Positions 9,016 through 24,951 of a stretch of 64,000 nt of DNA are shown here, in pieces. This stretch comes from Bacteroidales bacterium. Lineage in GTDB: Bacteria > Bacteroidota > Bacteroidia > Bacteroidales > UBA932. Position numbers and translations under genes: made by a program. The stretch is from assembly GCA_017469745.1 (NCBI GenBank), contig JAFUFS010000004.1, forward strand, positions 80,395 through 144,394, read 5' to 3'. The notes under the pieces are model-generated. The model did not search any database. It saw only the letters and a program-made list of their open reading frames with translations, and had not been told where the DNA came from. Within the stretch, counting starts at the first letter, position 1. Each line of letters begins with the position of its first letter.

Positions 9016-9127
9016 GGGAGACATAACCTATCGGCACCACTGCCACCCTCGGCACGTTAAGAGGGGGGACCGGAGCGAAGCGAGCGGTGGGGCCGCGAAG
9101 CGGCGGTGCAGGTAGGTTATGTCTCCC
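9016..9127 (+). repeat. Hairpin repeat element, copy A (112 bases)
   Basis: Outer arms 9016-9030 (GGGAGACATAACCTA) and 9113-9127 are perfect reverse complements over 15 bases. Inside them GCACC (9034-9038) pairs with GGTGC (9105-9109). The core 9037-9107 is the same sequence as in copy B at 24805-24885 (opposite strand): 41 bases identical, then 30 bases with one difference, around a 10-base indel found only in copy B. The core contains a small GC-rich hairpin, GCCGC-GAA-GCGGC. There is no T-tract, so it is not a standard terminator. The region 8826-9155 otherwise holds only the XRE promoter and palindromes. It ends 28 bases before the next ATG. Mobile palindromic element or structured RNA are both open. 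Confidence 0.8.
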
Positions 9128-9155
9128 TGGAGGAGCAGAGTAAAGTAAGGAGAAT

Positions 9156-9407
9156 ATGGAAAAGTTGATGGAAGATTATGCCGCTTTCGAGCGGGCGATG
9201 GACGAGGGCAAGGTGTACCTCGATCTGGATTTTGAAGAAATCTGCACTGCATTGGGAGCGGACAAGGACGCTCTTGACAGGCTGATTCTGAACGAGACGG
9301 GCTATTCAGGCCAGGGACTTGTGGACTTTTATCATTCTAATTTTGCTAATGGGTCATTTTTTGCTAAATTTGCCCGGTTATACCCTTTAGCCAAAGAAGA
9401 ATCATAA
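9156..9407 (+). CDS. Small hypothetical protein (83 residues)
   Basis: Preceded by a good ribosome site (TAAGGAG, 6 bases from the ATG). Acidic N-terminal half; no signal peptide or membrane segment. Residues 20-62 (LDLDFEEICTALGADKDALD, then LNETGYSGQGLVDFYHS) resemble one helix-turn-helix pair of AraC-type proteins in spacing: 'EICxxLG ... G.S...L..FY'. Homology to that family is not established. The last 25 codons (Phe-rich, HSNFANGSFFAKFARLYPL) are AT-rich and contain the promoter of the following EF-G-like gene. It lies between the hairpin repeat and the EF-G-like gene. Function not recognised. Confidence 0.65.
   Translation: MEKLMEDYAAFERAMDEGKVYLDLDFEEICTALGADKDALDRLILNETGYSGQGLVDFYHSNFANGSFFAKFARLYPLAKEES
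9342..9372 (+). promoter_or_regulatory. Promoter for the EF-G-like gene, inside the preceding gene
   Basis: TTTG (9342-9345), a 19-base spacer, TAAATTTG (9365-9372): a full match to the Bacteroidota housekeeping promoter. The predicted transcript start is near 9379, giving a leader of about 45 bases. A second -7-like word, TAATTTTG, overlaps at 9338-9345. Confidence 0.6.
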
Positions 9408-9423
9408 TTAATCACTTATAGCA

Positions 9424-11571
9424 ATGAAGGAATATTCAACAAAAGACATCCGCAATGTGGTCCTGATCGGAAGTTCCAAGTCAGGCAAAACTACATTGTC
9501 CGAGGCCATGCTCTATGAGGGCAAAGTAATCGACCGCAGAGGTTCGGTGGAAGCCAAGAACACTGTTTCCGACAACACCGAGTTCGAGCAGACAAACCAG
9601 AAGTCGGTCTATGCAACCCCGCTCTATGCAGAGTTCGCAAACACCAAGTTCAACATCATCGACGCTCCTGGTTCCGATGACTTCTGCGGTGGCGCCATCT
9701 CCGCTTTCAAAGTCTGCGAGTCCGCAATCCTCACCATCAACGCCCAGCAGGGTGTCGAGGTCGGAACTGAGATCTTCGCCCGCTACGCCGACCAGTACAA
9801 AAAGCCCATGATCGTGGCTGTGAACGAGCTGGACACCGAGAAAGCCAACTGGGAGCACACCCGTGACACCCTCAAGGAGGCTTTCGACAAGAAGGTCGTC
9901 TTCGCACAGTTCCCTGTCAACCCTGGTCTTGGCTTCGACGGCATCGTGGATGTCATCACCATGAAGTACTATCGTTTCAAGGATGAGAACGGCAATTTCG
10001 AGGAGCTTGAAATCCCCGCTGAATATGCCGACGAGGCCGAAGAGCTTCACATGGAGCTCGTCGAGAAGGCCGCCGAAGGAGACGATGCCCTCATGGAGAA
10101 ATATTTCGAGACCATGGAACTCTCGATCGACGAGGTTCGTGCCGGTCTGCGTGCCGGTCTCGCCAAGAGGGAGGTCATGCCCGTCTTCTGCATCTCCGCC
10201 AAGAAGGACGTGGGTGTCAAGAGGCTCATGGAATTCGTCGTCAACGTCGCTCCTTCACCCGAAGGAACAGTCCAGAACACCATCGGTGGTGGTGAGCTGA
10301 AGTGCGATGCCAACGGTCCTGTCAGCATATTCATCTACAAGACTTCCGTCGAGCAGCACCTTGGTGATGTCTCCTTCTTCAAGGTGATGAGCGGTGTCCT
10401 CAAGGAAGGTGCCGACCTCGTGAATCCCGAGACCGGCAACGGTGAGCGTCTTTCCGCTCTCTATGCCGTCAACAAGAAGGACAGGGTCACTTCCATCTCC
10501 GCCGGTGACATCGGATGCGTTATGAAGCTCAAGGCCGGCAAGACCGACGTTACCCTCGCTGCAGCGGGCCAGGATGCCATCGAGCACATGGTCTTCCCTG
10601 ACGCAAGGTATCGCTGCGCCGTCAAGGCTGTCGACAAGAACGATGAGGCAAAGGTCGGTGAGGCTCTCAACAAGATCGCCGCACAGGATCCTACCATCAA
10701 TGTTGAATATTCCAAGGAACTTCGCCAGACCATCCTCAGCGGCCAGGGCGAGCAGGCTATCAACCTCGTGAAGTGGAGAATGAACAACGAGTTCAAGCAG
10801 AACATCGAGTTCCTCGCTCCGAAGGTGCCTTACCGTGAGACCATCACCAAGGTTGCTACCGCTCAGTACCGCCACAAGAAGCAGTCCGGTGGAGCAGGCC
10901 AGTTCGGTGAGGTCCATCTCCTCGTCTGCCCTTACGTAGAGGGTGAGCCCGCCGGCAACAAGTTCATGATCAACGGAAAGGAGACCATCCTCAACATCAA
11001 GTCCCAGGAAAGCTACGACCTCGAATGGGGCGGCAAGCTCGAGTTTATCAACTGCGTCGTCGGTGGCGCCATCGATCTCGGCTTCATGCCTGCTATCCTC
11101 AAGGGTATCAACGACAAGATGACCGAGGGCCCTCTCACCGGTTCCTATGCCCGTGACATCAGAGTCTACGTCTACGACGGTAAGATGCACCCGGTGGATT
11201 CCAAGGAAATCGCCTTCATCATCGCTGGTCGTAACGCCTTCAAGGAGGCCTTCCGCAACGCTGGTCCGAAGATCCTCGAGCCTATCTACAACGTGGACAT
11301 CCTCACTCCTAACGAGTTCGTAGGTCCTTGCATGTCCGACCTCAACGGTCGCCGTGGAATGATCATGAACCAGGACATGGACAAGGGATTCACCATCCTC
11401 CACGCCCGCGTTCCGCTCGCAGAGCTTTACAGGTACTCAACCACCCTCAGCTCCCTCACCGGAGGCGCCGCAACCTTCACGATGAAGTTCGCGGACTACC
11501 AGCAGGTTCCTGCTGATGTCCAGACCAAGCTTCTCGCCGATTACGCCGCCCAGGAGCAGGACGAGGACTAA
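9424..11571 (+). CDS. fusA2: EF-G paralog with degenerate GTPase motifs (FusA2/EF-G2 type)
   Basis: 715 residues with the full EF-G layout: G domain, domain II, then domains III-V (for example YRETITKVATAQYRHKKQSGGAG starting near residue 470, split here for brevity). The P-loop is present (GSSKSGKTT, 16-24). The catalytic His of the DTPGH motif is Ser84 (DAPGSDDF), and the NKxD motif is NELD (134-137). In B. thetaiotaomicron a second EF-G (EF-G2) has been reported to support translation without GTP hydrolysis during carbon limitation, under the regulator Cur. The motif changes here fit that type; orthology is inferred. It is transcribed from its own promoter at 9342-9372 and followed by a strong terminator. 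A canonical fusA must lie elsewhere. Confidence 0.88.
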   Translation: MKEYSTKDIRNVVLIGSSKSGKTTLSEAMLYEGKVIDRRGSVEAKNTVSDNTEFEQTNQKSVYATPLYAEFANTKFNIIDAPGSDDFCGGAISAFKVCESAILTINAQQGVEVGTEIFARYADQYKKPMIVAVNELDTEKANWEHTRDTLKEAFDKKVVFAQFPVNPGLGFDGIVDVITMKYYRFKDENGNFEELEIPAEYADEAEELHMELVEKAAEGDDALMEKYFETMELSIDEVRAGLRAGLAKREVMPVFCISAKKDVGVKRLMEFVVNVAPSPEGTVQNTIGGGELKCDANGPVSIFIYKTSVEQHLGDVSFFKVMSGVLKEGADLVNPETGNGERLSALYAVNKKDRVTSISAGDIGCVMKLKAGKTDVTLAAAGQDAIEHMVFPDARYRCAVKAVDKNDEAKVGEALNKIAAQDPTINVEYSKELRQTILSGQGEQAINLVKWRMNNEFKQNIEFLAPKVPYRETITKVATAQYRHKKQSGGAGQFGEVHLLVCPYVEGEPAGNKFMINGKETILNIKSQESYDLEWGGKLEFINCVVGGAIDLGFMPAILKGINDKMTEGPLTGSYARDIRVYVYDGKMHPVDSKEIAFIIAGRNAFKEAFRNAGPKILEPIYNVDILTPNEFVGPCMSDLNGRRGMIMNQDMDKGFTILHARVPLAELYRYSTTLSSLTGGAATFTMKFADYQQVPADVQTKLLADYAAQEQDED

Positions 11572-11588
11572 TCCTTGTATTTATCTAG

Positions 11589-11626
11589 AAATGACCCCCT
11601 TCTTAGGATCGGGGTCATTTTTTTTT
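11589..11626 (+). terminator. Rho-independent terminator after the EF-G-like gene
   Basis: A 10-base perfect stem AAATGACCCC (11589-11598) / GGGGTCATTT (11611-11620), 12-base loop, and a T-run through 11626. Confidence 0.9.
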
Positions 11627-11656
11627 GTTTTAATGGACGCATTTTTAATATATTTG
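11624..11656 (+). promoter_or_regulatory. Promoter for the TonB receptor operon, starting in the terminator T-run
   Basis: TTTG (11624-11627) taken from the end of the terminator T-run, a 21-base spacer, TATATTTG (11649-11656). The predicted start of transcription is near 11663, about 22 bases before the TTG start codon. Confidence 0.6.
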
Positions 11657-11684
11657 GGTTTATATTGATATAAAGATCAAATAT

Positions 11685-14600
11685 TTGAACAAACTTAACA
11701 TATTCCTGACGGCAATAGCCATCCTGATCGGTTCCGGAGTAGCAGCCCAGGGGCTCGTCAATGGCAGCGCCACGGAAGATTACGCCTCTTTGTTCAGGGG
11801 TACTCTTCCCAAATCATATCCATTCAAGTACAATGGTACCTACTATTGGGACACAAAGCAGTACCAGGAGGGGAAGGTTTTCTATAACGGAAAACTCTAT
11901 GAGCATGTGTTCCTCAATGTGGACGCGTATCAGAAGCAGCTTCTAGTAAGTCCGGTGCAGAACTTCACTCCCGTAATCGTGTTCCGCGACCAGGTCGCCT
12001 GGTTCACGATGGGGGAAAAGGTTTTCTGGAACCTTCGCTATCTCGGCTATACAGAAGCCCCTGAGGGTTTCTTCGAAGTGATGCGGGATGGCCAGGTCCC
12101 TCTGCTCTGTCAGGTCAAGAAATCCCTGGCATTCAATAACAACAATAATAACGGGGCCATCATCGGTTATAATGATCCTGACTATGATACTTCGATCTAC
12201 TCGTTTTTCCAGATTAAGCGTAAGTACTATTCGCTTGAAAATGGCAAGCTTAAGCCGCTGAGCAAGAGGGCTTTCCGAAAAAGAATGAAGCAGGACGGAG
12301 GTGAACCGTCATTGACTGCGGAGACGGTTGCCTGGCATCCTGGCTCTGAGACAAGCTTGTCCGCAATCATTCCTGAGGCATCGCTTCCCGGTCAAGGTAC
12401 CGGGCTTCCTTCCGGCTATTTCGATGAAGTTAAGGAGGACACCCTTACTGTCACGTACGCGGACAATGCCGTGATTACTTCCTATAAGAATAAGGTATAC
12501 ACCATCGGATCGGACAATAGGTCAAAGTCCGGAACGAATACTGTCGAAGGGACAGTCATCGAATACGAAACTGACTTGCCTTTGCCGGGAGTCGTGGTCT
12601 TCGATGACAACACTTCTACCTACACCAGGACGGATGCTCGCGGAAGGTTCAAGATACGGCTCCCTTCTGGAGAGAACGTCCTGAATTTCAATGCGGAATC
12701 CAAAGAGCCCCTGGCCTTGAAAGTGATTGTCCTATCCGATGGCGTCATGGATGTGATAATGACGGAAAAGGTAACCATGCTTAAAGGGGTTGTGATCTCG
12801 GCGGAAAGCATGGCTAACCACCGGACCACATCCCTTGGAGTGGAAAGGCTTGGAGCCAAGACTCTGAATAAGCTTCCTACTGCTTTCGGCGAAGGAGACG
12901 TTTTGAAGGCTGTCCTGACATTGCCAGGAGTGAAGAGCGTCGGAGAGGCTTCTGCCGGTTTCAACGTGCGCGGAGGCTCTGCGGATCAGAATCTTATCCT
13001 TTTCAACGAGAGCACGATCTACAATCCTACCCACATGTTCGGAATCTTCTCTGCGTTCAATCCTGACGTGGTGGACAATGTGGAATTGTTCAAGAGTTCC
13101 ATCCCGGCAGAATACGGAGGCCGTGTGTCTTCCGTCCTGAAGGTCAAGTCCAAAGAGGGTGATTCCCAGAAATGGAAAGGTTCTGCCGGAATCGGACTGC
13201 TGACCAGCAGACTCCAGTTGGAAGGTCCTTTACGCAAGGGGAAAACCACAGTTGTAGGCAGTGCAAGGACAACATATTCAGATTGGATCCTGGGCCTTCT
13301 GCCTGAGGACAGCGAGTACTCCGGAGGCAAGGCAGATTTTTTGGATGCGAATCTTGGCGTGACACACCGTTTCAACTCCAGGAACACCCTTCAGGCATTC
13401 GGCTACTTTGCAAGGGATAAGTTCGTTTTTGGTGCAGACACCACCTTCCACTACCAAAATTACAACGCATCCTTGATTTTCAAGCACAGGTCTGACAACG
13501 GAGGAACGCTTGACCTGAGCGGAGGATACGACCATTTCGACAACAGGGTGTCGGTGTACTCTTGGAACTATGCTGCATATGACATCAGCACTTTCATCCG
13601 TCAGGCCTTCCTGAAAGGTAACCGTACCCTTCCGTTGAATGATTCCCACATTCTTTCGTATGGTGTTCATCTGTTGGGATATGGATTGGATCCGGGCATC
13701 CAGAGACCTTATGGTGAAGAATCTTCCATCCGCGAGCGGAGCTTGGACAGGGAATACGCTATGGAGCCCTCCCTCTACGCTTCTGACAGTTGGACTCTTA
13801 CAGACCGTTTCTCCCTCGACGGAGGAATCCGTCTGTCTGGTTTTTACGCTCCAGGGCCGGGTGCTTTCTATGCCGGACCTGAATATCGACTATCAGGAAA
13901 GTTCACATTAGCGGACAACCTTTCTATTAAGGGCGGCATCAACACGATGCGTCAGTATATTCATCTGATTTCGAACACTTCAGCCATTTCCCCCATGGAC
14001 ACTTGGAAGCTGTCGGATTCCGACATCCGGCCCACCAAGGGATGGCAGGCTGCCTCGGGAATATATTGGACCAGCCTCAACTCAGGCATCGACTATTCCG
14101 CTGAAGCTTACTATAAAGGTTCTACCAACCATCTGGACTACAAGGCTGGTGCGACTCTGGTCATGAACGAAAATCTGGCTGAAGACCTGGTGCCTGTCCG
14201 TACAAGTTCCTTTGGAATAGAATTCATGGCAAAAAAGACAACCGGCAAGCTCACAGGCTGGGCTTCCTACAGTTATTCCAGGGCCAAGTTCCGTGAGATG
14301 TTGGATCGAGGCAATGAAACGATCGCCGGCGGCAACTGGTACCATGCTCCGTATGATAAACCTCATGAATTCAAGCTGGCTTTCAACTATGCCCTTACTC
14401 ACCGTTACAGCTTCTCAGTGAATGTGGACTATTCCACAGGCCGGCCTGTTACCATCCCGATAGGAACCTACACCTATCTCAATTCTTGGAGGCTGGCATA
14501 TTCTGAAAGGAATTCCCATCGTATCCCGGATTATTTCCGTACAGACGTGGCTTTCAACATCGATCCTGGCCATTACCTGCTGGCCTGGGCTCACGCAACC

Positions 14601-14747
14601 TTTACCATCGGAGTCTACAATGTGACCGGCAGGAAGAATCCCTATTCAGTGTTCTATAAAATATCCAACTACGGTGCCACCAGCGGGCACATGCTCTCGG
14701 TGTTTGCAACCCAGATCCCTTACGTCAACCTTAACCTGCTGTTCTGA
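11685..14747 (+). CDS. TonB-dependent outer-membrane receptor with carboxypeptidase-like regulatory domain
   Basis: 1020-residue outer-membrane beta-barrel for TonB-driven uptake. Order: signal peptide (1-22), an unusual N-terminal region of about 270 residues rich in Tyr/Lys with an Asn6 run, a CarboxypepD_reg-like domain (about 284-355, VEGTVIEYETDLPLPGVVVF), plug (about 385-490, GFNVRGGSADQNLILFNE), then the barrel ending in aromatic NLNLLF. No ATG fits the start; the frame opens with TTG at 11685, directly giving a normal signal peptide. The stop overlaps the DUF4249 gene start (TGATG). It is not a SusC (no SusD follows). The ligand is unknown. Confidence 0.9.
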   Translation: MNKLNIFLTAIAILIGSGVAAQGLVNGSATEDYASLFRGTLPKSYPFKYNGTYYWDTKQYQEGKVFYNGKLYEHVFLNVDAYQKQLLVSPVQNFTPVIVFRDQVAWFTMGEKVFWNLRYLGYTEAPEGFFEVMRDGQVPLLCQVKKSLAFNNNNNNGAIIGYNDPDYDTSIYSFFQIKRKYYSLENGKLKPLSKRAFRKRMKQDGGEPSLTAETVAWHPGSETSLSAIIPEASLPGQGTGLPSGYFDEVKEDTLTVTYADNAVITSYKNKVYTIGSDNRSKSGTNTVEGTVIEYETDLPLPGVVVFDDNTSTYTRTDARGRFKIRLPSGENVLNFNAESKEPLALKVIVLSDGVMDVIMTEKVTMLKGVVISAESMANHRTTSLGVERLGAKTLNKLPTAFGEGDVLKAVLTLPGVKSVGEASAGFNVRGGSADQNLILFNESTIYNPTHMFGIFSAFNPDVVDNVELFKSSIPAEYGGRVSSVLKVKSKEGDSQKWKGSAGIGLLTSRLQLEGPLRKGKTTVVGSARTTYSDWILGLLPEDSEYSGGKADFLDANLGVTHRFNSRNTLQAFGYFARDKFVFGADTTFHYQNYNASLIFKHRSDNGGTLDLSGGYDHFDNRVSVYSWNYAAYDISTFIRQAFLKGNRTLPLNDSHILSYGVHLLGYGLDPGIQRPYGEESSIRERSLDREYAMEPSLYASDSWTLTDRFSLDGGIRLSGFYAPGPGAFYAGPEYRLSGKFTLADNLSIKGGINTMRQYIHLISNTSAISPMDTWKLSDSDIRPTKGWQAASGIYWTSLNSGIDYSAEAYYKGSTNHLDYKAGATLVMNENLAEDLVPVRTSSFGIEFMAKKTTGKLTGWASYSYSRAKFREMLDRGNETIAGGNWYHAPYDKPHEFKLAFNYALTHRYSFSVNVDYSTGRPVTIPIGTYTYLNSWRLAYSERNSHRIPDYFRTDVAFNIDPGHYLLAWAHATFTIGVYNVTGRKNPYSVFYKISNYGATSGHMLSVFATQIPYVNLNLLF

Positions 14748-15886
14748 TGAAAAAGTTTTTTGTTCTAATACTGATGCTCTCTGGGTTGGTGTCTTGTATC
14801 TACCCTTACAATCCTGACATTGATGGGGCGACTGATGACATGGTTGTCATTGAGGGCACCATCATGCCAGGAGGCACGTCCACATTCAGTTTTTCTAAGG
14901 TGTATCCACTCAAGAGAAACGGACTTCACGAAAATGTCGTGGGCCGTGCCTGGGTGGAAGACGATCAAGGTAAAGTCTATCAGCCCTCATCCCAGAATCC
15001 TTCTTCAAGCGTAGAGATTCCCATGGAAAATGCATCATCAGACCGGAGATACCGGATGACATCCGAAATTGGAGGGAAGATATATTCAAGTGACTGGCTG
15101 GAGCCCAAGGCCCCGCCGGTGATTGAGAATATCGATTTTTCTCTCTCAGAGGATTCTACGTCTGTCGTGGTGGGCGTCACCCTCAGCGGAGGTAAAGAAG
15201 GAACTGGGTATATCGGCCTTGCATTCGAAGAGACTTGGGAGTTCCACACTGACTTCATGGGCGAGTATTATCTCGACACGTTGAGGTGGTCAGTCGAACC
15301 TTTGCAGTCGCCTTATCCCAACTACTGGTGTTGGAGGTCGAGAACCTCCGGGATGTACCTGGTGTCTTATGCTGAATTGACCTCAGACAGGCTTCCGTCC
15401 AAACCCATCCAATCTTTCAGTTGCTCGGACAGCCGCAATCATAAGCTGTATTCGATCAACGTAAAGGCCGTCACCTTGTCTGAAGAAGCCTACAAGTACA
15501 TCCAAAATGTGGGAATGATCTCGGAGGGGCAAGGCAGTCTTTTCTCTCCGAATCCAGGGGAAATGGCAAGCAACATCATCTGCGAGTCCAATCCCGATCA
15601 AAAAGTCGAAGGGTATGTCACTGCAGGCCAGGCGACAACGAGTCGAGCTTTCCTGGACAGCAGGTTCTATCATTACAGACTTCCTTCTACAAACAACTTT
15701 TTCATCCCCGGCCCGATGGACAATTATAGGGAGCTGTACCAGAACAAAGTCTATCCGATTGCTTTCATGAGTCTTCCTACAGGGGAGAACAATGAATATG
15801 TTGACGGTATCTACTGGGGTCCGCTCCGTTGCATAGACTGTCTCGTTGACGGAGGAACCAAGGATAAACCAGATTTTTGGCCATGA
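14747..15886 (+). CDS. DUF4249 lipoprotein
   Basis: 379 residues. Signal peptide with lipobox GLVSC (Cys near residue 17), followed by YPYNPDIDGATDDMVVIEGT, typical of DUF4249 proteins, which regularly follow TonB receptors of this class in Bacteroidota. Mostly beta-rich, predicted surface or periplasmic lipoprotein that works with the receptor. The start overlaps the receptor stop by one base and the stop overlaps the next start (ATGA), so translation is coupled across the three genes. Molecular function is not established for the family. Confidence 0.85.
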   Translation: MKKFFVLILMLSGLVSCIYPYNPDIDGATDDMVVIEGTIMPGGTSTFSFSKVYPLKRNGLHENVVGRAWVEDDQGKVYQPSSQNPSSSVEIPMENASSDRRYRMTSEIGGKIYSSDWLEPKAPPVIENIDFSLSEDSTSVVVGVTLSGGKEGTGYIGLAFEETWEFHTDFMGEYYLDTLRWSVEPLQSPYPNYWCWRSRTSGMYLVSYAELTSDRLPSKPIQSFSCSDSRNHKLYSINVKAVTLSEEAYKYIQNVGMISEGQGSLFSPNPGEMASNIICESNPDQKVEGYVTAGQATTSRAFLDSRFYHYRLPSTNNFFIPGPMDNYRELYQNKVYPIAFMSLPTGENNEYVDGIYWGPLRCIDCLVDGGTKDKPDFWP

Positions 15887-17556: not shown

Positions 17557-17562
17557 CCTATT

Positions 17563-20100
17563 CTAAAGTTTCGCTATCGCACCGAGGAGCTGGTCGCCAA
17601 GGCCGATGGTGTAGCCGTCGGTCCTGAAGAAGACACGGTTGAAAGTGTCGGCGATCATGACCCGAGGCATGGCTCCGGTCATCATCTCCTTGGGAGCTAT
17701 TCCGAAGCGGACATTGGAAGGAAGCCTGTCGGAATAGTCCTTAGCCCAGGCAAGTCCTTCGGCCGTGGTCAGGAGCATGATGGGGCGTCCCCATTTTTCA
17801 AGTCCGTCCTTGCTGGCAATCAGGTCGTTGATGGCATGTACCGAAGGTTCCTGGCGCGGGGTAAGGAAGGCTACTACATAGACTCCGCGGCCGGTAGTCG
17901 AAAGGATGGAGACCGGATCCGAATCTGCAGTGACCCTGTACCTGGTCTCGGCGTCGAAGTCTCCGATCACGCTGAGCTTGTTGTCCGGGATGGTGATGGT
18001 AAGATCGAGGGATGTGGTTTCCCCTTCCTTAACAGTGAAATGTTGCATGGTCACGGGCACGCTTCCGTCTGAGAGGCGGTTGCCGCTTACGAGAATATAT
18101 TCACCGGTGTCGACCGGGGTGCCTTTCTTGAAGACGTTCTCCCAGCTGACTCCGCCGCCCATGTCCACCTGGCCTTCATCGAAGCTCAGCACCTGGGTGC
18201 GGCCGTCAGCTATCTTGCTGATAGTGAAGTGGCTGTAGTAGCCGGGGTTGCCGAGGGCGGCAGTGGGTTCGTAGTCGAGGCGGACTATGCCGGTCGGAGC
18301 CACAGCGTCGCTTGCCGACTCGAAGTCCACGTCCCTCCAATCAGCTGCGTTCCCTGAGCCGGTCGAAGAGTACTGTACCTTTCCAGTCACCGGGTCCTTC
18401 CTGGCATCGATCCCTAGGGTCCTGGCCAGAGAAATGAAGAACAGGTTCCTGGAACGTGTGTCGGCCATCCTTGCGCGCCAGACTCCTTCCGGGGACATAG
18501 GAATCCTGGTGGCCTTCGGATCGTCGAACACCTCGATGTTGTCGTTCACCCATTTGACGAGAGTGGCAGGATCCGAAAGAGCCTTTTTCTGGTCTTTGCT
18601 CAGGACTCTCTTGAAGAAACCCTTGTAGGGGCTGAGGAATTCGTTCTCGATCCTAGGGCAGAGGATGGACTCTTCGGAGAGGTAGCTGTCGTCAAGGATC
18701 TCCCTGGTGACGTCGATCATGTCCTTGTCGCTCAAAGACTGAAGCAGTTCAAGGGCCCTTTGGTCAGGGTGGTCCGCAAGGAACTTTCTTATCACTTCAT
18801 GGTTGCCTGCAGCCTTGGCAAGGAGCCTTCCCTCAGGGGTCCCGTCGTCCTTTGCGAAGGTGGCCATGTAGGTTTTGCGGATGAGGTCTTCCTGGGCGAA
18901 ACGGATGTCGTTGGCCTTGCGCTGTTCCTCAGTCACTTCCGGTAGGTTTGCGGTCTCGGGCGGAGGTACTATCATCATCTGTTCGGCCTCACCGGAGTGA
19001 TCCTTGGAAATCACGATTGTGACGAGGGAATCCTTTCCGAAGGAGACTTTTGACCAGCCGTAGAGTCCGTCCTTCGAGGCCCATGCGAGCATGTCCCCCA
19101 TTCCGGCGGTCAGGAAGGTGCGGCCTTCCTTGTCAGTGAATTTGGAGAGTGCTGAATAGAACTCCGCGTAGTTGTAGATCTTGAAATCCACGAGGGCGCT
19201 GTCCACGGGGCTGCCGTCTTCTCGGACGACCTTGAAGTCGGCGCGGGCAGTCTTTGCGTAGTTGTCTATCAGGTTGATTTCCGTGATGTTGGGACCTTCC
19301 ATGACCTTTTCTTCCGGACCGTCGTAGCGGCCGAAGACCCTTGTGTGCATCAGCATTCCGCGGCTGGCAGGGGCATTGAACCAACCCAGGTTCAGCACCG
19401 GCTCGGGCTCGCAGGCACCCATGAAGTACCACTCTCCGTCAGCCCAGGCCTCGACCCAGGCATGGTTGTCGTCGGTGTGGGCCCAGCGGGGAGTGTAGAC
19501 CTGGCGTGCCGGGATGCCTACCGAGCGGAGGGCTGTCACTGTGAAGGTGGATTCCTCTCCGCAGCGGGCAAGGGTGCTCATGGCACTTGCCAGCGGAGAA
19601 AGCGTCCTGGCGTCGGAGGGCTTGTAGGTGAGTTTCTCATGGCACCAGTGATTGACTTCGAGAATGGCGTCCTTCATGCTCATTCCTTCGATGCGGGGCT
19701 TGATCTCCCTGGCGAAGGCCATCCTGGCAGTGTCAAGCTTTTCGTTGTTGACCCTTATCGGCAGGACGAAGTGTCTGAATATGCGCTCAGGAACATTCCA
19801 TCCCATTTCTTCGCGAGTCTTGAATGAGGACTGGACGCAGTCGAGGTAATAGCTGAGGGGATAGTCTGTCAGGTCCGCAAGGGGCATGTAGGCATAGAGG
19901 AACTTGAGGGCTTCCTTTTCCTCGGTAGTCAGCAGAAGGCTGTCGACAGGGCAGAATTCCTTCAAGTTGGGATTGGAAGCCATCCTGGCTCCGAAATCCT
20001 CTTCGACCTGGTGTCGGAAGGAGCTGTCGGTTATGAAATGATGCACTTCGCAAGATGCCAGAAGCAGCATGGCCATTACGGCAAACAGACACTTTCTCAT
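17563..20100 (-). CDS. Transglutaminase-like lipoprotein with C-terminal thioredoxin-like segment
   Basis: 845 residues, exported and lipid-anchored (lipobox LLLASC, Cys17). A transglutaminase/protease-like core spans about 140-250. The nucleophile is Cys180 (ARCGEESTFTVTALRSVGIPA), the His is His213 (DDNHAWVEAW), and the usual third Asp is replaced in a MGACEPEPVLNLGWF stretch. A long beta-rich middle follows, with a carboxypeptidase-like 'D-x-x-G-x-T' segment near 315. The last about 120 residues resemble a thioredoxin-like fold without a CxxC. Such proteins may process peptides, cross-link or cleave cell-wall peptides; substrate unknown. It is transcribed divergently from the SGNH/MBOAT operon through a symmetric promoter region. 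Confidence 0.8.
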   Translation of the reverse strand: MRKCLFAVMAMLLLASCEVHHFITDSSFRHQVEEDFGARMASNPNLKEFCPVDSLLLTTEEKEALKFLYAYMPLADLTDYPLSYYLDCVQSSFKTREEMGWNVPERIFRHFVLPIRVNNEKLDTARMAFAREIKPRIEGMSMKDAILEVNHWCHEKLTYKPSDARTLSPLASAMSTLARCGEESTFTVTALRSVGIPARQVYTPRWAHTDDNHAWVEAWADGEWYFMGACEPEPVLNLGWFNAPASRGMLMHTRVFGRYDGPEEKVMEGPNITEINLIDNYAKTARADFKVVREDGSPVDSALVDFKIYNYAEFYSALSKFTDKEGRTFLTAGMGDMLAWASKDGLYGWSKVSFGKDSLVTIVISKDHSGEAEQMMIVPPPETANLPEVTEEQRKANDIRFAQEDLIRKTYMATFAKDDGTPEGRLLAKAAGNHEVIRKFLADHPDQRALELLQSLSDKDMIDVTREILDDSYLSEESILCPRIENEFLSPYKGFFKRVLSKDQKKALSDPATLVKWVNDNIEVFDDPKATRIPMSPEGVWRARMADTRSRNLFFISLARTLGIDARKDPVTGKVQYSSTGSGNAADWRDVDFESASDAVAPTGIVRLDYEPTAALGNPGYYSHFTISKIADGRTQVLSFDEGQVDMGGGVSWENVFKKGTPVDTGEYILVSGNRLSDGSVPVTMQHFTVKEGETTSLDLTITIPDNKLSVIGDFDAETRYRVTADSDPVSILSTTGRGVYVVAFLTPRQEPSVHAINDLIASKDGLEKWGRPIMLLTTAEGLAWAKDYSDRLPSNVRFGIAPKEMMTGAMPRVMIADTFNRVFFRTDGYTIGLGDQLLGAIAKL

Positions 20101-20122
20101 GATTCGTTATGATTGTCAATCT

Positions 20123-20149
20123 TACAAATATAATAAATTTGTAACTTTG
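20123..20149. promoter_or_regulatory. Symmetric divergent promoter region
   Basis: TTACAAAT (20123-20130) and ATTTGTAA (20137-20144) are perfect inverted repeats. They contain a minus-strand -7 element, TATATTTG (20132-20125), for the transglutaminase gene, and a plus-strand -7 element, TAAATTTG (20134-20141), for the SGNH gene. A second plus-strand -7, TAACTTTG, abuts at 20142-20149. The two opposite -7 elements are one base apart, so polymerase could occupy only one direction at a time. Confidence 0.55.
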
Positions 20150-20168
20150 AGGCCTTGTTTTCGACGGG

Positions 20169-21617
20169 ATGAAACGTCACGCTGTAGCCATATTCGTTAT
20201 CTCTGTCCTGGCCCTGGTCGTCGCCTGCTGGTATTTCTTTCCTTCAGACGGGATCAAGACCCGGGGCATGACGTTCCGTTTTCCCTCGTACGAGTCTTAT
20301 CTTCAGGATCTTCAGGGCGGGAGCGGCCCAGATGCAGACTCCGCCATCCTCGCCGCTCGACGGGCCTTCGAACTGATACAGGAGTCAGGCGACACACTCG
20401 GTTTTTTCAAGGAATATTTTGCTTCGGATCCCAACCGCATATTCCTGCCCGACAGCGGATTTTCCTATTTCGACTCGCTCTTCGTGGAGATGGAGAATGC
20501 CGGGGATGAAGGCAGGGTCCTGAGGGTCATGCATTACGGCGACTCCCAGCTAGAGATGGACAGGATCTCCGCTATCCTGCGCCAGGAGCTGCAGGAGAGG
20601 TTCGGCGGTTCCGGTCCCGGAATGGTACCGATGGTCAAGACCATCTCCTCGGTCTCGGTGACCCAGCATGCCAGCGGTTCTCTTGTCCGCTATGCAAGGG
20701 TTACAGATTCCCTCTCACATTGGACGTCTACTCACCGCTACGGACCTATGACCCAGTACGTAGGGGTGTTCGGCAGCGGTCGTTTCAATTTCCGCAGGAC
20801 CGAAAACCGCTATGCCCAGGAGAATGCGAGAAGGATTTCCAGGGTCTCGGTCCTGCTCGGCCACAACAGCCCCGGCCTGTCGCTGACTCTTAAGTGTGAC
20901 ACCCTTGCTGCCATGAAGGAAGTTCTTGATTCAGCGAAGGATGAGGTCTCCCTCGTCTCCTGGGAACTGCCCGTCGACGTGAACTCTGGCTCCATCACTC
21001 TGACCGGTGACGCGGAGGTTTATGGAATCATGCTTGACGGAGCTCCGGGAGTCACGGTTGACAACGTGGCCATGAGGGGCTGTTCCGGAACGGTCTTCAC
21101 TGACATCGATTCGACTGTCATGAAGCAGTCTTTCGACACCACGGGTACCCGTCTCATAATTCTCCAGTTCGGCGGCAATGCCATGCCGGGGATCGGTTCC
21201 AGGAAGGGGATTTCCCTCTATGTAGACAGGATGGATGCCCAGTTCGAGTATTTCAGGAAGGTTGCTCCCAAGGCCACCCTCCTCTTCGTCGGTCCTGCTG
21301 ACATGTGCAAGAGCGTCAACGGATCCCTCGTGACCTGGCCGCTTCTTTCCGAACTCAATGATTCCTTGAAGGTTCACTGCCTGCAGAACGGGGTGGCCTA
21401 CTGGGACACTTTCAACATGATGGGCGGTGCCGGTTCCATGAGGCAGTGGGTGAACCTCAATCCTCAGTTAGCCGGTCCCGACTACATCCATTTCACGACC
21501 AGGGGTGCCAACGAGGTCGGCAGCGCCCTTGCCAAGTCCCTCCTGGTCTACCACGACTTTCTCCAGCTTCGCAGGAAACTTCCCGAAGAGGAGCTCAATG
21601 AATATATGAACAGATGA
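20169..21617 (+). CDS. SGNH/GDSL-type hydrolase or acyltransferase, membrane-anchored (first of two)
   Basis: 482 residues with an N-terminal membrane segment (AIFVISVLALVVACWYFF, 6-23), so periplasmic and anchored. The SGNH fold is shown by VMHYGDSQLEMD near residue 119 (block I, Ser nucleophile), LQFGGNAMPG (block III, Gly and Asn) and DYIHFTTRGANEVG near 440 (block V, Asp-x-x-His). Between blocks lies a beta-rich insert of about 150 residues. Its stop overlaps the start of a second SGNH gene and an MBOAT gene follows, the layout of polysaccharide O-acetylation systems in which MBOAT passes acyl groups across the membrane to an SGNH transferase. Acylation role inferred from context. Confidence 0.8.
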   Translation: MKRHAVAIFVISVLALVVACWYFFPSDGIKTRGMTFRFPSYESYLQDLQGGSGPDADSAILAARRAFELIQESGDTLGFFKEYFASDPNRIFLPDSGFSYFDSLFVEMENAGDEGRVLRVMHYGDSQLEMDRISAILRQELQERFGGSGPGMVPMVKTISSVSVTQHASGSLVRYARVTDSLSHWTSTHRYGPMTQYVGVFGSGRFNFRRTENRYAQENARRISRVSVLLGHNSPGLSLTLKCDTLAAMKEVLDSAKDEVSLVSWELPVDVNSGSITLTGDAEVYGIMLDGAPGVTVDNVAMRGCSGTVFTDIDSTVMKQSFDTTGTRLIILQFGGNAMPGIGSRKGISLYVDRMDAQFEYFRKVAPKATLLFVGPADMCKSVNGSLVTWPLLSELNDSLKVHCLQNGVAYWDTFNMMGGAGSMRQWVNLNPQLAGPDYIHFTTRGANEVGSALAKSLLVYHDFLQLRRKLPEEELNEYMNR

Positions 21618-22879
21618 TGAGAAGGTTCCTTGAATATTCATTGATGCTTCTGCTCCTGCCCGCCGTCCTTTGTGGGCAGACGTTGCGCAGGCCTGTACCC
21701 GACCTGGAATTCGCCAGCCTCGATGGCAACAGGATAGAATTCCTTGGGGACAGCTCTGCTTTCGGAATCTTATTCACAAAGATGGATGGAGTCCTCTTCG
21801 AGAGGAACTCTAACCTTCGGATAATGCACATCGGCGGCTCACATGTCCAGGCCGGCACGATGACAAGGCAGCTCCGCAACGACCTTCTCGCTCTCGGGGA
21901 CAGCCTTGACGGGGGACGCGGCCTGGTGTTTCCTTTTTCCGCCGCCAAGACGAACAACCCCAGCAGTTTCCGGACCAGGTTCTCCGGGGAATGGAAGGCC
22001 ACGAAGAATGTGTCGAGGGAGCCGGACAGGCGCCTCGGCCTTTCCGGGATGGCTCTTTCATCTTCCGATTCGACTGCCTTCCTGCGGGTTGTCCTGAATG
22101 CCAGGAATGCAACGGCGATGGATCCTTCGTTCAGCTTCGACAAGGTGGCGGTCCTGGGATATTCATCGGAAGGGGAACGCTCTCCGCTGGTGATTCTGGA
22201 ATCCGGCGACACACTTGCGGGAATCCGTGATGAGGCTGCTTCGCTCTGGTCTTTCGAGCTTCCGGCGCCTGCCGACTCTGTCACGGTGGCCCTTGGCAAA
22301 GGTGAAGGGACACTTACTGTCACAGGAATATTTCTTGACAACCGTCTCCCGGGAATCACGGTTACCGGAATAGGAGTCAACGGAGCGGCCTTGACTTCCT
22401 ACCTCAGGTGCGCGGATTTCGAAAGGGATCTCCGGCTGGTTCGTCCCGACCTGGTGGTTTTCGGAATAGGAATTAACGATGCTTCCGGGAAGGACTTTTC
22501 CAAGGAGGATTTCATCTCCCGTTATAAGACCCTGATTGCAAGGGTGAGGGCCGTCAATCCGGACTGCGCCCTTCTCTTCATAACCAATAACGACAGTTAC
22601 CGTAGGGTGAGGCGCAGGGTCTATTCTGTCAACAGGAACGCCCTTGAAGTGGAGGATGCCTTCTACAGGCTCTGCTCCGACTGCGGAGGCGGTGTCTGGA
22701 ACCTTTTCGAGATCATGGGAGGCCTTGAGTCGATGAAGGATTGGGAGGAGGCCGGATTGGCCAAGAGGGACAAGATCCATTTTACCGAGGAAGGCTATGC
22801 CGTGGTCGGGGACCTGCTGTTCAATGCCCTCATGGGCAAATACGTCGAACATCTTAGAAGGAGGGTGTCATGGGATTGA
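21614..22879 (+). CDS. SGNH/GDSL-type hydrolase or acyltransferase, secreted (second of two)
   Basis: 421 residues. Signal peptide with cleavage after VLCG. Block I reads MHIGGSHVQAG near residue 75: the Ser is kept but the preceding Asp of 'GDS' is Gly. Block III is VFGIGINDASG, and block V is DKIHFTEEGYAVVG near residue 395. It is related to the gene just upstream, with similar length and the same insert position, so the pair probably arose by duplication. The start is coupled to the upstream stop (ATGATGA), and the last 10 bases overlap the MBOAT start, which has a clear AGGAGGG ribosome site. Likely periplasmic O-acyltransferase or esterase acting on a glycan. Confidence 0.8.
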   Translation: MMRRFLEYSLMLLLLPAVLCGQTLRRPVPDLEFASLDGNRIEFLGDSSAFGILFTKMDGVLFERNSNLRIMHIGGSHVQAGTMTRQLRNDLLALGDSLDGGRGLVFPFSAAKTNNPSSFRTRFSGEWKATKNVSREPDRRLGLSGMALSSSDSTAFLRVVLNARNATAMDPSFSFDKVAVLGYSSEGERSPLVILESGDTLAGIRDEAASLWSFELPAPADSVTVALGKGEGTLTVTGIFLDNRLPGITVTGIGVNGAALTSYLRCADFERDLRLVRPDLVVFGIGINDASGKDFSKEDFISRYKTLIARVRAVNPDCALLFITNNDSYRRVRRRVYSVNRNALEVEDAFYRLCSDCGGGVWNLFEIMGGLESMKDWEEAGLAKRDKIHFTEEGYAVVGDLLFNALMGKYVEHLRRRVSWD

Positions 22880-24729
22880 AGGAAGTAGCGCTTGATTTCT
22901 TCGGCAACCTGTTCGCCTTCGACCAGGCTCACCCCTTGCTGTTCACCCAATTCTATTTCTGGGCGTTCTTCGCCATCGTCCTCGCCTTCCTGTGTGTTTT
23001 CCGCAACAAGATCCTCCTCAGGAACGCCTTCATCTTCTTCGCCAGTCTCTTCTTCTACTACAAGACCAGCGGACTATTCCTGATCCTGCTGGGCTTCGTG
23101 ATAGTCTATAACTATCTTGCAGGGCTCTGGCTGCCGCATTGCCGGAGGACTTTCTGGAGAAAGACGGTGGTTGTCCTGAGTGTGGTTGTAGACCTTTCGC
23201 TGTTGTGCTACTACAAGTACGCCTATTTCATCACGGACGTGGTCAACAACCTCTTCGGGACCGCCTTCGTGGTCAAGGACTGGTTCGCTGCCGCTGGCAA
23301 CAGCCTCGTGGGTTCCCAGGCCTTCAGCGTCGATTCGATATTCCTTCCGGTCGGTATTTCGTTCTTCATCTTCCAGGCCATCAGCTACGTGGTGGATGTC
23401 TCCCGAGGCATGAAGCCGGTGAAGAATTTCATGGATTTCGGCTTCTACCTGAGCTTCTTCCCTCAGCTTGTCGCCGGTCCTATCGTGAGGGCGAAGGACT
23501 TCATTCCTCAGTTGCGCAAGCCCTTCTTCCTTGGCCGTACCCAGTTCGGAATAGCTGTGTTCTGGATCCTCAACGGTCTTGCCAAGAAGCTGATCCTGAG
23601 CGACTACCTTGCAGTGAACTTCTGCGACAGGGTCTTCGAGAATCCTCTACTGTACACCGGTTTTGAGAACCTTACCGCCCTGTTCGGCTATTCGCTCCAG
23701 GTCTATGCCGACTTCTCCGGCTACACGGACATAGCCACCGGTGTCGCCATGCTGATGGGATTCTACCTGCCGAAGAACTTCGATTCTCCGTATAAAGCAA
23801 GGAATGCGGGCGAATTCTGGAGAAGGTGGCACATCTCCCTGTCCACCTGGCTCAGGGACTATCTCTACATCCCTCTCGGAGGCAACCGCAACGGTACCTT
23901 CGGATCCTATGCCATCATCCTTGGAATAGCCTTCCTGGCTTCCGCCCTGGCAGGGAGCTGGTGGGTTTTCGGAAGCGTGCTCGTACTGACTGTCGTCCTG
24001 GCTTTGCTGATCCTCTTCAAGAAGTCCTGGCGCAAGGAGCTTATCTCTGACATCAACCGGATGGACACCATGCTCCTGGGAGGTCTCTGGCACGGGGCCA
24101 GCTGGAACTTCATGATCTGGGGCGGACTGAACGGTCTCGGAATGCTGATCTACCGCTTCTGGCACAGCTGCAACGCTTATTTCAGGGTTCTTATCATGGT
24201 CCTCATCGTGGGTGCTTTCGGGGCGTTGAGGTATTTCTACGACTATCCGGTCTTCAACCTGTTCTTCTGGTGGACGGCTATCATCCTGGCCGGAGCCCTG
24301 GTGGGAATGGTCTTCCACAAGGTTCGCAGAGGCGGTTTTTCCAATTGGATCAAGAATTCATGGGCTGTACTTATGACGTTCATATTCATAACCTTCACGC
24401 GGCTTTTCTTCCGCAGCGGTTCCAATCTTGATCCGGCGGAGGCCAATGAGAAGGCGTGGAGTACGGCTAAGAACATGGTGAATCAGATTGGTGGAAGCTG
24501 GGACTGGTCGCTTGTGCCGCAGATGGCTTGGCAGCACAGGAGCATTATCCTGGTCTTCCTCGTCGGCATGCTGATCCATTGGTTGCCGGACAATTTCAAG
24601 AGGCGTTACAGGATCTGGTTCGCAAAGATGCCGCTCGTGCTGATGGTCCTCGCCTGCCTCGTCGCCGTCTTCATCATCTGCCAGTTCGTCACCGCAGACC
24701 TCCAAAGCTTTATTTACTTCCAGTTCTAG
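22870..24729 (+). CDS. MBOAT-family O-acyltransferase (AlgI/DltB-like)
   Basis: 619-residue polytopic inner-membrane protein with about 11-13 hydrophobic segments. It moves acyl groups across the membrane for glycan O-acylation. MBOAT signatures: FFPQLVAGPIVRAKDFIPQL (about 195-214), YADFSGYTDIATGVA, GEFWRRWHISLSTWLRDYLY with a conserved His, and the catalytic His of LLGGLWHGASWNF (about 400-412). The family's usual length is 450-520; this one is longer because of an insert near 360-395 and an extended C-terminus. Last gene of the SGNH-SGNH-MBOAT operon. Its stop codon lies inside the stem of a terminator. Acetate is the usual group; not shown here. Confidence 0.92.
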   Translation: MGLKEVALDFFGNLFAFDQAHPLLFTQFYFWAFFAIVLAFLCVFRNKILLRNAFIFFASLFFYYKTSGLFLILLGFVIVYNYLAGLWLPHCRRTFWRKTVVVLSVVVDLSLLCYYKYAYFITDVVNNLFGTAFVVKDWFAAAGNSLVGSQAFSVDSIFLPVGISFFIFQAISYVVDVSRGMKPVKNFMDFGFYLSFFPQLVAGPIVRAKDFIPQLRKPFFLGRTQFGIAVFWILNGLAKKLILSDYLAVNFCDRVFENPLLYTGFENLTALFGYSLQVYADFSGYTDIATGVAMLMGFYLPKNFDSPYKARNAGEFWRRWHISLSTWLRDYLYIPLGGNRNGTFGSYAIILGIAFLASALAGSWWVFGSVLVLTVVLALLILFKKSWRKELISDINRMDTMLLGGLWHGASWNFMIWGGLNGLGMLIYRFWHSCNAYFRVLIMVLIVGAFGALRYFYDYPVFNLFFWWTAIILAGALVGMVFHKVRRGGFSNWIKNSWAVLMTFIFITFTRLFFRSGSNLDPAEANEKAWSTAKNMVNQIGGSWDWSLVPQMAWQHRSIILVFLVGMLIHWLPDNFKRRYRIWFAKMPLVLMVLACLVAVFIICQFVTADLQSFIYFQF

Positions 24730-24769
24730 ACTGGAATTTTCAAGTCTAGAACTGGATTTTCCTTTTTTT
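24720..24769 (+). terminator. Terminator overlapping the MBOAT stop codon
   Basis: Perfect 13-base stem CCAGTTCTAGACT (24720-24732) / AGTCTAGAACTGG (24743-24755), 10-base loop, then a T-rich tract. The TAG stop (24727-24729) is within the left arm, so ribosomes finishing translation would sit on the hairpin. Confidence 0.75.
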
Positions 24770-24781
24770 CATATACTTTTC

Positions 24782-24910
24782 AAAAGGGGACTATGACCCC
24801 ATGAACCGCCGCTTCGCGGCCCCACCGTTCGCTTCACTACGTTCCGCTCCGGTCCCCCCTCTTAACGTGCCGAGGGTGGCAGTGGTTCATTGGGGTCATA
24901 GTCCCCTTTT
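24782..24910 (-). repeat. Hairpin repeat element, copy B
   Basis: Arms 24782-24801 and 24891-24910 are perfect reverse complements over 20 bases (AAAAGGGGACTATGACCCCA and partner). The pairing continues through TGAAC/GTTCA with one bulged T. The core (24805-24834 and 24845-24885) is the reverse complement of copy A; 24835-24844 is a 10-base stretch absent from A. From GGGG to CCCC it is 121 bases (24786-24906). The orientation is opposite to copy A relative to the next gene, whose ATG is 41 bases away, which argues against a strand-specific leader. The region 24730-24951 holds only the terminator tail, this element and the ribosome site of the next gene. Confidence 0.8.
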
Positions 24911-24951
24911 TGAAGTATTATTCGTATATTGCAGGAGAAATATTTGGAAAA

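What the first reader, a model, noticed from the sequence alone, without database searches (positions are those of the whole stretch)
9016..24910. Two copies of an undescribed-looking hairpin element with a fixed core and covarying arms
Copies at 9016-9127 (+) and 24786-24906 (-) share a 71-base core: 41 identical bases, then 30 with one difference, around a 10-base indel. The 23-base left arms match at only about half of their positions, yet each arm is complementary to its own partner (15 of 15 in A; 20 of 20 in B when extended). In the inner stem, GCACC/GGTGC in A is GAACC/GGTTC in B, a compensatory C-G to A-T change. Selection or a copying process is therefore keeping the arms paired. Both sit 28-41 bases before an ATG, but in opposite orientation relative to that gene, so a leader riboswitch is unlikely. 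Possibilities are a non-autonomous mobile hairpin moved in trans, a structured RNA, or a DNA-hairpin binding site.
Basis: partly seen in the sequence, partly recalled or inferred. Interest (0 to 1): 0.75.

Follow-up and report, generated by a model that had tools for sequence, protein, structure and literature searches.

The report
Shape-shifting hairpin repeat in rumen bacteria
The two matching hairpins belong to a widespread family of small repeated DNA elements in gut Bacteroidales that sit even inside essential-looking genes without breaking them, whose paired arms change together and whose middle often flips over, most likely because the copying machinery keeps jumping between the two arms.

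Summary
The window's genome holds 24 copies (E<=2e-5), a relative up to 30, and 90 of 299 genomes of the family have hits. Core: a short hairpin whose loop can pair with GAGGG (pseudoknot), then two hairpins. Outer arms are copy-specific yet pair with their own partner in 158 of 161 copies. At orthologous sites arms change on both sides together (158 against 33.5 expected), and the core is turned in 75 of 166 ortholog pairs. In the best-resolved pair the whole segment is inverted in place. 15 of 24 own-genome loci examined lie in-frame in ORFs, such as ispE-, purH-, argC- and aroC-like genes. argC orthologs of native length lack both arms. Best reading: an undescribed family of protein-coding palindromic elements working like Rickettsia palindromic elements. 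Arms are kept paired, and the core flipped, most likely by DNA-polymerase template switching between the arms, known elsewhere to cause both effects. Selection on a structure is not excluded. A leader riboswitch and a REP/RAYT element are disfavoured. How new copies arise is unknown.

The parts
9016..9038 (+). Copy A, left arm (copy-specific; pairs with 9105-9127)
   Evidence: Read directly; arm pairing; model match 9018-9128
9039..9104 (+). Copy A, core: GCC-ACCCTC-GGC hairpin with GAGGG pseudoknot partner, hairpin B (short form), hairpin C
   Evidence: helix and pseudoknot pair counts
9105..9127 (+). Copy A, right arm
24884..24910 (-). Copy B, left arm in element orientation (pairs with 24782-24807)
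24808..24883 (-). Copy B, core (long form of hairpin B, 10 nt longer than copy A)
24782..24807 (-). Copy B, right arm in element orientation
8391..8825 (-). Flanking gene of copy A: small protein with a helix-turn-helix look (my reading, no family search)
   Evidence: ORF list
9156..9407 (+). Flanking 83-aa ORF downstream of copy A
   Evidence: ORF list
22870..24729 (+). Flanking gene of copy B: membrane-bound O-acyltransferase-like (my reading, no family search)
   Evidence: ORF list
24910..25446 (+). Flanking ORF of copy B: thioredoxin-like (my reading, no family search); likely ATG at 24952
   Evidence: ORF list; sequence

Best explanation
A dispersed, non-autonomous palindromic repeat of about 110-150 bp. 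Each copy is one long imperfect hairpin: a conserved pseudoknotted core with two inner hairpins, closed by a copy-specific outer stem. Shown: it is repeated 24 times in this genome and found across the family; at the sites where element-free orthologs were compared the arms belong to the insertion; the element lies in-frame in many ORFs, in either orientation; arms stay complementary by paired changes; the core is turned at about half of the orthologous pairs, and in the best-resolved pair the whole segment is inverted in place. Inferred: during replication the nascent strand pairs with the other arm and copies it (template switching). When the switch is within one strand an arm is rewritten to match its partner, which gives covarying arms; when it is between strands the middle is inverted. 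In-frame copies are tolerated as extra peptide and persist as near-neutral, selfish inserts, as proposed for Rickettsia palindromic elements. Cores stay alike either because they are selected or because they are overwritten from other copies. The step that makes new copies is not identified.
For: Copy number: 24 copies at E<=2e-5; 31 of 61 genomes, own included; 1 of 25 genera; 90 of 299 genomes, 9 of 25 genera of the family. Arms pair with their own partner: 158 of 161 copies against 130 of 1602 swapped pairings (161 of 178 distinct copies were usable). 15 of 16 outer pairs changed on both sides. Orthologous sites: 166 filled pairs at 37 sites; 75 flipped, and 3 of 7 even at 90-99% flank identity; 18 of 37 sites show both orientations. 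In 72 clean pairs with 1692 base pairs, both sides changed at 158 (33.5 expected if independent), of which 117 restore a Watson-Crick pair; the shifted-partner control gives 402 of 8199 (333.5 expected). In-place inversion: L107 against L221, flanks 89/94% identical, arms with their asymmetric bases turned together with the core; L185 against L235 likewise by eye. In-frame: 15 of 24 own-genome loci examined; 9 of the 10 hosts given to Pfam score over a curated cut-off; 109 of 185 testable copies are spanned by an ORF of 200 aa or more, with frames concentrated on sense-0 (57) and antisense-2 (28). argC: 189 nt in G000 against 69 nt in 7 of 12 orthologs, with neither arm there; at the L093/L114 site many orthologs likewise leave about 9 or -3 nt where the filled ones have 146-149. 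Template switching causes arm homogenisation and spacer inversion (PMC8604942, passages) and is argued to maintain stems through compensatory change (PMC8794818, passages).
Against: Ortholog pairs share ancestry, so the counts are not independent events. The arm alignments are automatic; over all 121 usable pairs 404 one-sided broken and 99 both-broken cells remain, part of which may be real, and the shifted control is itself slightly above expectation. No within-species data were available, so no single inversion or conversion event was caught. [quoted passage not shown] the spacers here are roughly 65-90 nt. Template switching alone does not explain how new copies arise, nor why cores stay alike. 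In 24 of 26 same-genome pairs with cores at least 95% identical the arms score below 14 (random pairs average 5.9), which is not what simple copying of a whole element predicts. The ORF control (675 of 1000 random windows spanned) shows no preference for genes, only tolerance.
Confidence: 0.62

Rival explanations
1. Functional structured RNA or DNA hairpin: each locus is selected to keep the hairpin (for example RNA processing, attenuation, a nucleoid or protein binding site), and compensatory changes reflect that selection.
For: Strong covariation of the outer stem and a core in which first hairpin and pseudoknot are nearly constant; at the site of window copy A two orthologs keep nearly the same core while the arms differ.
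Against: Orientation is near random at orthologous sites (75 of 166 flipped), copies occur both inside unrelated genes on either strand and outside long ORFs, and some genomes of the genus have none found (6 of 36 relatives). An oriented RNA or site would not be expected to survive inversion. In the closest flipped pairs the core changed more than the arms.
Confidence: 0.2
2. Two-part mobile element: the arms stay at the site as a hairpin dock, and cores are exchanged between docks in either orientation by an unknown single-strand DNA or RNA route.
For: 24 of 26 near-identical core pairs within a genome have arms scoring below 14; in 28 of 56 ortholog pairs with conserved arms a same-genome core elsewhere is closer than the ortholog's core, e.g. 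L235 core 1 step from L208 but 10 from its ortholog.
Against: In L107/L221 the asymmetric inner arm bases turn with the core, which is inversion and not exchange. Taking the best of several paralogs favours paralogs by chance. Homologous gene conversion between copies would give the same pattern without a special mechanism. Mean core identity is higher between orthologs than within genomes.
Confidence: 0.2
3. Site-specific inverton: a recombinase flips the core as a phase switch.
For: Frequent inversion at orthologous sites.
Against: The breakpoints in L107/L221 lie outside the conserved inner stem, in the copy-specific outer arms, so there is no common recombinase site among copies; many copies lie inside ORFs. 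No search for invertase genes was made.
Confidence: 0.06
4. REP/RAYT-type element moved by a Y1 transposase.
For: Short palindromic repeat; 19 of 61 genomes of the genus have a Y1 match, among them G017 with 30 copies.
Against: PF01797: no match at E<=1e-6 in G000 (24 copies), G033 (23), G016 (28) or G027 (28). No formal correlation with copy number was computed. The GTAG or CGTC tag was not examined.
Confidence: 0.04
5. Insertion of a bare core into host sequence, with arms made from host flank.
For: Arms differ from site to site.
Against: argC orthologs of native length lack both arms: 69 nt against 189 nt. Some arms of unrelated loci share a common pattern, e.g. GGCACTCCGGATGGCGAGACC-like.
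Confidence: 0.05

Closest known systems
Rickettsia palindromic elements (RPE) and Wolbachia palindromic elements
   Same: About 100-150 bp, palindromic, repeated, some families inserted within existing ORFs without destroying the frame, found at similar sites in orthologs (PMC3767692 and PMC10969869, passages).
   Different: Different phylum; here a pseudoknotted core with copy-specific arms, use of open frames on both strands, and inversion with compensatory arm change. The passages I read describe neither arm covariation nor inversion for RPEs, but I did not read the original RPE papers. No sequence comparison with RPEs was made.
Template-switch mutations between inverted repeats (quasipalindromes)
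   Same: Arm homogenisation, spacer inversion and compensatory change as a mutational by-product (PMC8604942, PMC8794818; passages).
   Different: The yeast coding cases read in PMC8604942 have short spacers (inversions changing 2 to 5 bp); here a dispersed element with a core of roughly 65-90 nt shows both effects again and again at orthologous sites, also inside housekeeping genes.
MITEs and REP/RAYT elements
   Same: Small, non-autonomous, palindromic, dispersed; intragenic MITEs can also make in-frame fusions (PMC10969869, passages).
   Different: No Y1 transposase in four copy-rich genomes. Fixed terminal inverted repeats are what MITEs usually have (recalled), whereas here the terminal arms are the variable part.
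Invertible promoters (invertons) of Bacteroides (recalled, no call)
   Same: Inverted repeats around a flipping segment.
   Different: No shared recombinase site among copies; many copies lie in coding genes.

Membership tests
Rickettsia-type palindromic elements (protein-coding palindromes) | Dispersed palindromic repeat of about 100-150 bp | tested here: met
   24 copies in G000; model of 119 positions covering core and inner arms
Rickettsia-type palindromic elements (protein-coding palindromes) | In-frame insertion in functional ORFs | tested here: met
   15 of 24 own-genome loci examined; curated cut-off passed by 9 of 10 hosts scanned, the tenth (manA-like) 26 bits against 27; argC lengths. 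That the proteins work is inferred.
Rickettsia-type palindromic elements (protein-coding palindromes) | Conserved encoded peptide | tested here: met
   Preferred frames sense-0 and antisense-2 in 85 of 109 ORF-spanned copies; TATLGT-RGG..AERSEA-type peptide seen by eye
Rickettsia-type palindromic elements (protein-coding palindromes) | Insert at solvent-exposed site of the protein | not tested
   Structure prediction was tried three times; the machine was busy
Rickettsia-type palindromic elements (protein-coding palindromes) | Rickettsiales host | tested here: not met
   The 80 record titles seen are uncultured Bacteroidales or Bacteroidia
Rickettsia-type palindromic elements (protein-coding palindromes) | Sequence relationship to known RPE families | not tested
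   No RPE sequence was fetched or compared
REP/RAYT | Y1 (HUH) transposase in the genome | tested here: not met
   0 matches at E<=1e-6 in G000, G033, G016 and G027; one match in G017
REP/RAYT | 20-40 bp repeat (PMC3733652, abstract) | tested here: not met
   Length about 110-150 bp
REP/RAYT | GTAG or CGTC tag | not tested
   Not searched
MITE | Fixed terminal inverted repeats shared by copies (definition recalled) | tested here: not met
   The terminal arms are the variable part
MITE | Target-site duplication | not tested
   Junctions were looked at by eye in argC only
Rfam structured RNA families | Match at gathering score | tested here: not met
   0 matches in the window among 4227 families
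Template-switch-maintained inverted repeat | Arm homogenisation by paired changes | tested here: met
   158 both-side changes against 33.5 expected in 72 clean pairs; shifted control 402 against 333.5
Template-switch-maintained inverted repeat | Inversion of the spacer in place | tested here: met
   75 of 166 ortholog pairs in opposite orientation; in-place inversion resolved in L107/L221
Template-switch-maintained inverted repeat | Single events seen between near-identical strains | not testable with these tools
   One genome per species is held

The most novel reading that the evidence does not exclude
A two-part selfish element: self-maintaining hairpin docks whose arms drift freely but stay paired, into which a common core cassette is repeatedly copied or exchanged in either orientation through a single-stranded DNA hairpin stage (suggested by the GNA triloops, which are specially stable in DNA by recall), including inside housekeeping genes.
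Probability: 0.2. Interest if true: 0.85.

Novelty: new variant of a known kind. Interest (0 to 1): 0.62.

Why it matters
[quoted passage not shown] title seen in a reference list), although in-frame fusions by other intragenic MITEs are also mentioned. Here is a large family in gut Bacteroidales, with copies in about ten housekeeping proteins of one genome. Because the arms keep re-pairing and the core keeps flipping at orthologous sites, the family is a natural record that fits template switching: its rate, tract length and cost in coding DNA could be measured directly. It is also a warning for RNA discovery: strong covariation here need not mean a functional RNA. The permissive spots in enzymes show where extra peptide may be tolerated.

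Tried and rejected
Rfam gave nothing at gathering scores. Viral contigs held no exact core pattern, and plasmid and phage records no match for copy B, so no carrier was found. Y1 transposase as helper: absent from G000, G033, G016 and G027, present once in G017; no correlation was computed. Host-derived arms: disfavoured by the argC sites lacking the element. I first took the L006 site in G033 as a clean empty site; it carries another repeat (CTTAGGCCGTACTCAGC), so I do not use it as native sequence. Strong concerted evolution of cores: only partly supported (mean core identity: orthologs 0.815, within-genome 0.73, between-genome non-orthologous 0.66). In one search many rows called 'empty' were in fact filled, because they lie in loci that I had not scanned with the model; I use none of its counts. 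Structure prediction of ArgC could not be run. Paper searches for a description of this element found none in what was listed: 1 of 1 listed; 8 of 8; 0; 8 of 8; 10 of 626; 10 of 547; subscription papers are not held.
Full report
What is there. Copy A (window 9016-9127, +) and copy B (24782-24910, -) are as described. In element orientation the core begins GCC-ACCCTC-GGC, a small hairpin whose loop can pair with a following GAGGG (a pseudoknot). Then come hairpin B (ACCG...CGGT, of variable length, which accounts for the 10-base indel) and hairpin C (GCC..GGC). The outer stem is copy-specific. On the MAFFT alignment of 21 own-genome copies the outer stem has changes on both sides in 15 of 16 pairs, with 67.0% of its cells paired. 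The first hairpin (100% of cells paired) and the pseudoknot (95%) hardly vary, with one both-sided pair each, so they say little for or against themselves. Over the whole structure 0 of 500 shuffles reach the observed covariation score, and of the slid versions -1 comes nearest, 0.227 against 0.293.

How many and where. BLAST of copy A against the whole genome and the covariance model R1 give 24 copies at E<=2e-5, one of them cut by a contig end. In 61 genomes (own, 36 of the genus, 24 of other families of the order) 31 have a match, own included, all in the same genus. In 299 genomes of the family 90 have a match at E<=1e-6, in 9 of 25 genera. Both larger scans used stricter filters, so these are lower bounds. 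I think the genus is the one now called Cryptobacteroides, but that is recalled and comes from no call. Viral contigs, phage and plasmid records gave nothing.

Inside genes. One search examined 24 own-genome loci (23 of the 24 copies and one weaker match). In 15 the element lies in-frame inside a long ORF; two more were spanned by ORFs of 162 and 127 aa that I took as spurious. The 15 copies sit in 13 ORFs, since two ORFs hold two each. Pfam scanning of 10 of these ORFs gives curated-level hits for a GHMP kinase (ispE-like), IPP transferase (miaA-like), AICARFT/IMPCHase (purH-like), semialdehyde dehydrogenase (argC-like), RsmB/F methylase, chorismate synthase (aroC-like), FtsK, a GltD-type oxidoreductase and a tRNA-methyltransferase-type protein; the mannose-6-phosphate isomerase match scored 26 bits against a cut-off of 27. 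The remaining hosts (a GH3 glycosidase with two copies, a cardiolipin synthase, a BtuF-like protein with two copies) are my reading. Over 185 testable copies from all loci, orthologs included, 109 are spanned by an ORF of at least 200 aa; random 120-nt windows in the same loci are spanned in 675 of 1000. So genes are not preferred, but insertions are tolerated. The frame is not random: 57 sense copies use frame 0 and 28 antisense copies use frame 2, of 109.

The arms belong to the insertion. argC-type genes were matched in 31 of 61 genus genomes. Among the 30 loci fetched, a simple motif search recovered the relevant stretch in 13. Between two conserved codons G000 has 189 nt; the other 12 have 69 (7 of them), 72, 78, 84, 108 and 162 nt. 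In the 69-nt orthologs neither arm is present. Some of the others hold different small hairpins or another repeat at the same spot, so it is a permissive site. A further ortholog with the element in argC is L271. At the L093/L114 site many orthologs likewise have about 9 or -3 nt where filled ones have 146-149.

The arms covary and the core flips. Across 161 usable copies, left and right arm of the same copy pair with local score >=10 in 158, against 130 of 1602 swapped pairings, which include orthologs. I then compared orthologous filled sites, defined by both flanks matching: 166 pairs at 37 sites, leaving out pairs of 99% or more. The core is in the opposite orientation in 75 of 166: 12 of 27 at 66-75% flank identity, 37 of 74 at 75-80, 19 of 49 at 80-85, 4 of 9 at 85-90, and 3 of 7 at 90-99%. 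Eighteen of 37 sites show both orientations. Over the 72 cleanly aligned pairs, 1692 stem base pairs: 1374 unchanged, 158 changed on both sides (33.5 expected from the single-side rate), of which 117 are again Watson-Crick; 160 changed on one side. Over all 121 usable pairs: 1915 unchanged, 309 both (113.6 expected), 191 Watson-Crick, 493 one-sided. The same counts with the partner shifted by 2-3 positions give 402 of 8199 (333.5 expected). The clearest inversion is L107 (G017) against L221, where the flanks are 89 and 94% identical; turning the L221 element makes both arms, with their unequal inner bases, line up outwards to the ends of the stem, while the core differs in hairpin B. The window's own copy A has two orthologs (flanks 79 and 80% identical) with nearly the same core, apart from hairpin-B length, and with different arms: against L233, 14 stem pairs unchanged, 6 changed on both sides to Watson-Crick, 2 both-broken, 1 one-broken, 7 gaps; against L297, 11 unchanged, 2 both Watson-Crick, 1 both G-T, 5 both-broken, 6 one-broken, 2 one G-T, 3 gaps, so that second automatic count is poor although the L297 arms pair by eye. 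Copy B has one ortholog (flanks 88%, 27 of 29 stem pairs unchanged). All these are in the same orientation as in the window.

Interpretation. Homogenisation of arms and inversion of the spacer are the two described outcomes of polymerase template switching between inverted repeats (PMC8604942, passages read). Maintenance of stems by the same mechanism, with compensatory change and loop inversion, is argued in PMC8794818 (passages). One process therefore explains both unusual features here, inside or outside genes and in either orientation. [quoted passage not shown] here the element has open frames on both strands, which may soften that. Site-by-site selection for a structure explains the pairing but not the flipping. 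A recombinase explains the flipping but has no common site, because the breakpoints lie in the variable arms. The template-switching step is inferred, not shown.

What stays open. Cores that are at least 95% identical within a genome have arms scoring below 14 in 24 of 26 pairs (these 26 average 7.4, random pairs 5.9), while in 28 of 56 ortholog pairs with conserved arms a core elsewhere in the same genome is closer than the ortholog's core (choosing the best of several paralogs helps this count). In L235/L185 the ortholog core differs by 10 steps while another copy in the same genome differs by 1. Mean core identity nevertheless is higher between orthologs (0.815) than within genomes (0.73). 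So cores descend with their sites, perhaps with some overwriting by gene conversion or re-insertion. No mover is known: Y1 transposases were not found at E<=1e-6 in G000, G033, G016 or G027, but one is in G017, which has 30 copies. Triloop hairpins in the cores are of the GNA kind in 308 of 498 counts, with 237 further hairpins of longer loops counted; that GNA loops favour single-stranded DNA is recalled.

Known relatives. The nearest kind is the Rickettsia palindromic element: about 100-150 bp, in ORFs without breaking the frame, similar sites in orthologs (PMC3767692 and PMC10969869, passages; REP paper PMC3733652, passages). This works like an RPE. I do not call it one: the host is not a Rickettsiales member and no sequence link was tested. 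I found no description of this family in the searches made, which cover open PMC papers only and, in the last two, only the top 10 rows of several hundred.

Noticed in passing
L016/L040 and L009/L049 flanks; G000:C9:314, C20:60626, C40:34093: A second repeat with CCCCCTGCACCCCC followed by GGGGGACTGAGGGG...CCCCTCAG, also inside ORFs; exact 14-mer 3 times in G000, 13 in G033 (partly in tandem at about 70-nt steps), 2 in G017, none for the reversed control.
   Followed up: partly
L099:738-754 (G033:C1:29237-29253) and other places: A third short repeat, CTTAGGCCGTACTCAGC (up to 1 mismatch): 6 in G000, 6 in G033, 12 in G017, none for the reversed control; in G033 it sits where G000 has the L006 element.
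   Followed up: partly
argC site in L126 (G017), L128 (G073), L151 (G027), L125 (G033): The argC spot that carries the element in G000 carries other small hairpins or repeats in relatives (by eye), as if this loop were a common landing place.
   Followed up: partly
L092, L125/L241 (the same place in two records), L251: CCTGAGCTTGTCGAAGG, another quasi-palindrome, occurs in four fetched loci, once at the argC site of G033.
   Followed up: no
G000:C33:20937-21087 (L054): Weak model match (E 0.0019) with a long stem and a different, larger core; possibly a sister family.
   Followed up: no
G000:C29:68030 (L025): A dsbD-like ORF (my reading) holds 23 nt identical to the left end of the in-gene subtype, without the rest: a remnant, a partial deletion or chance.
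   Followed up: no
Cores of 194 copies: Inner hairpins often use GNA triloops (308 of 498 counted triloop hairpins) and, by eye, tandem GA/GA mismatches.
   Followed up: partly
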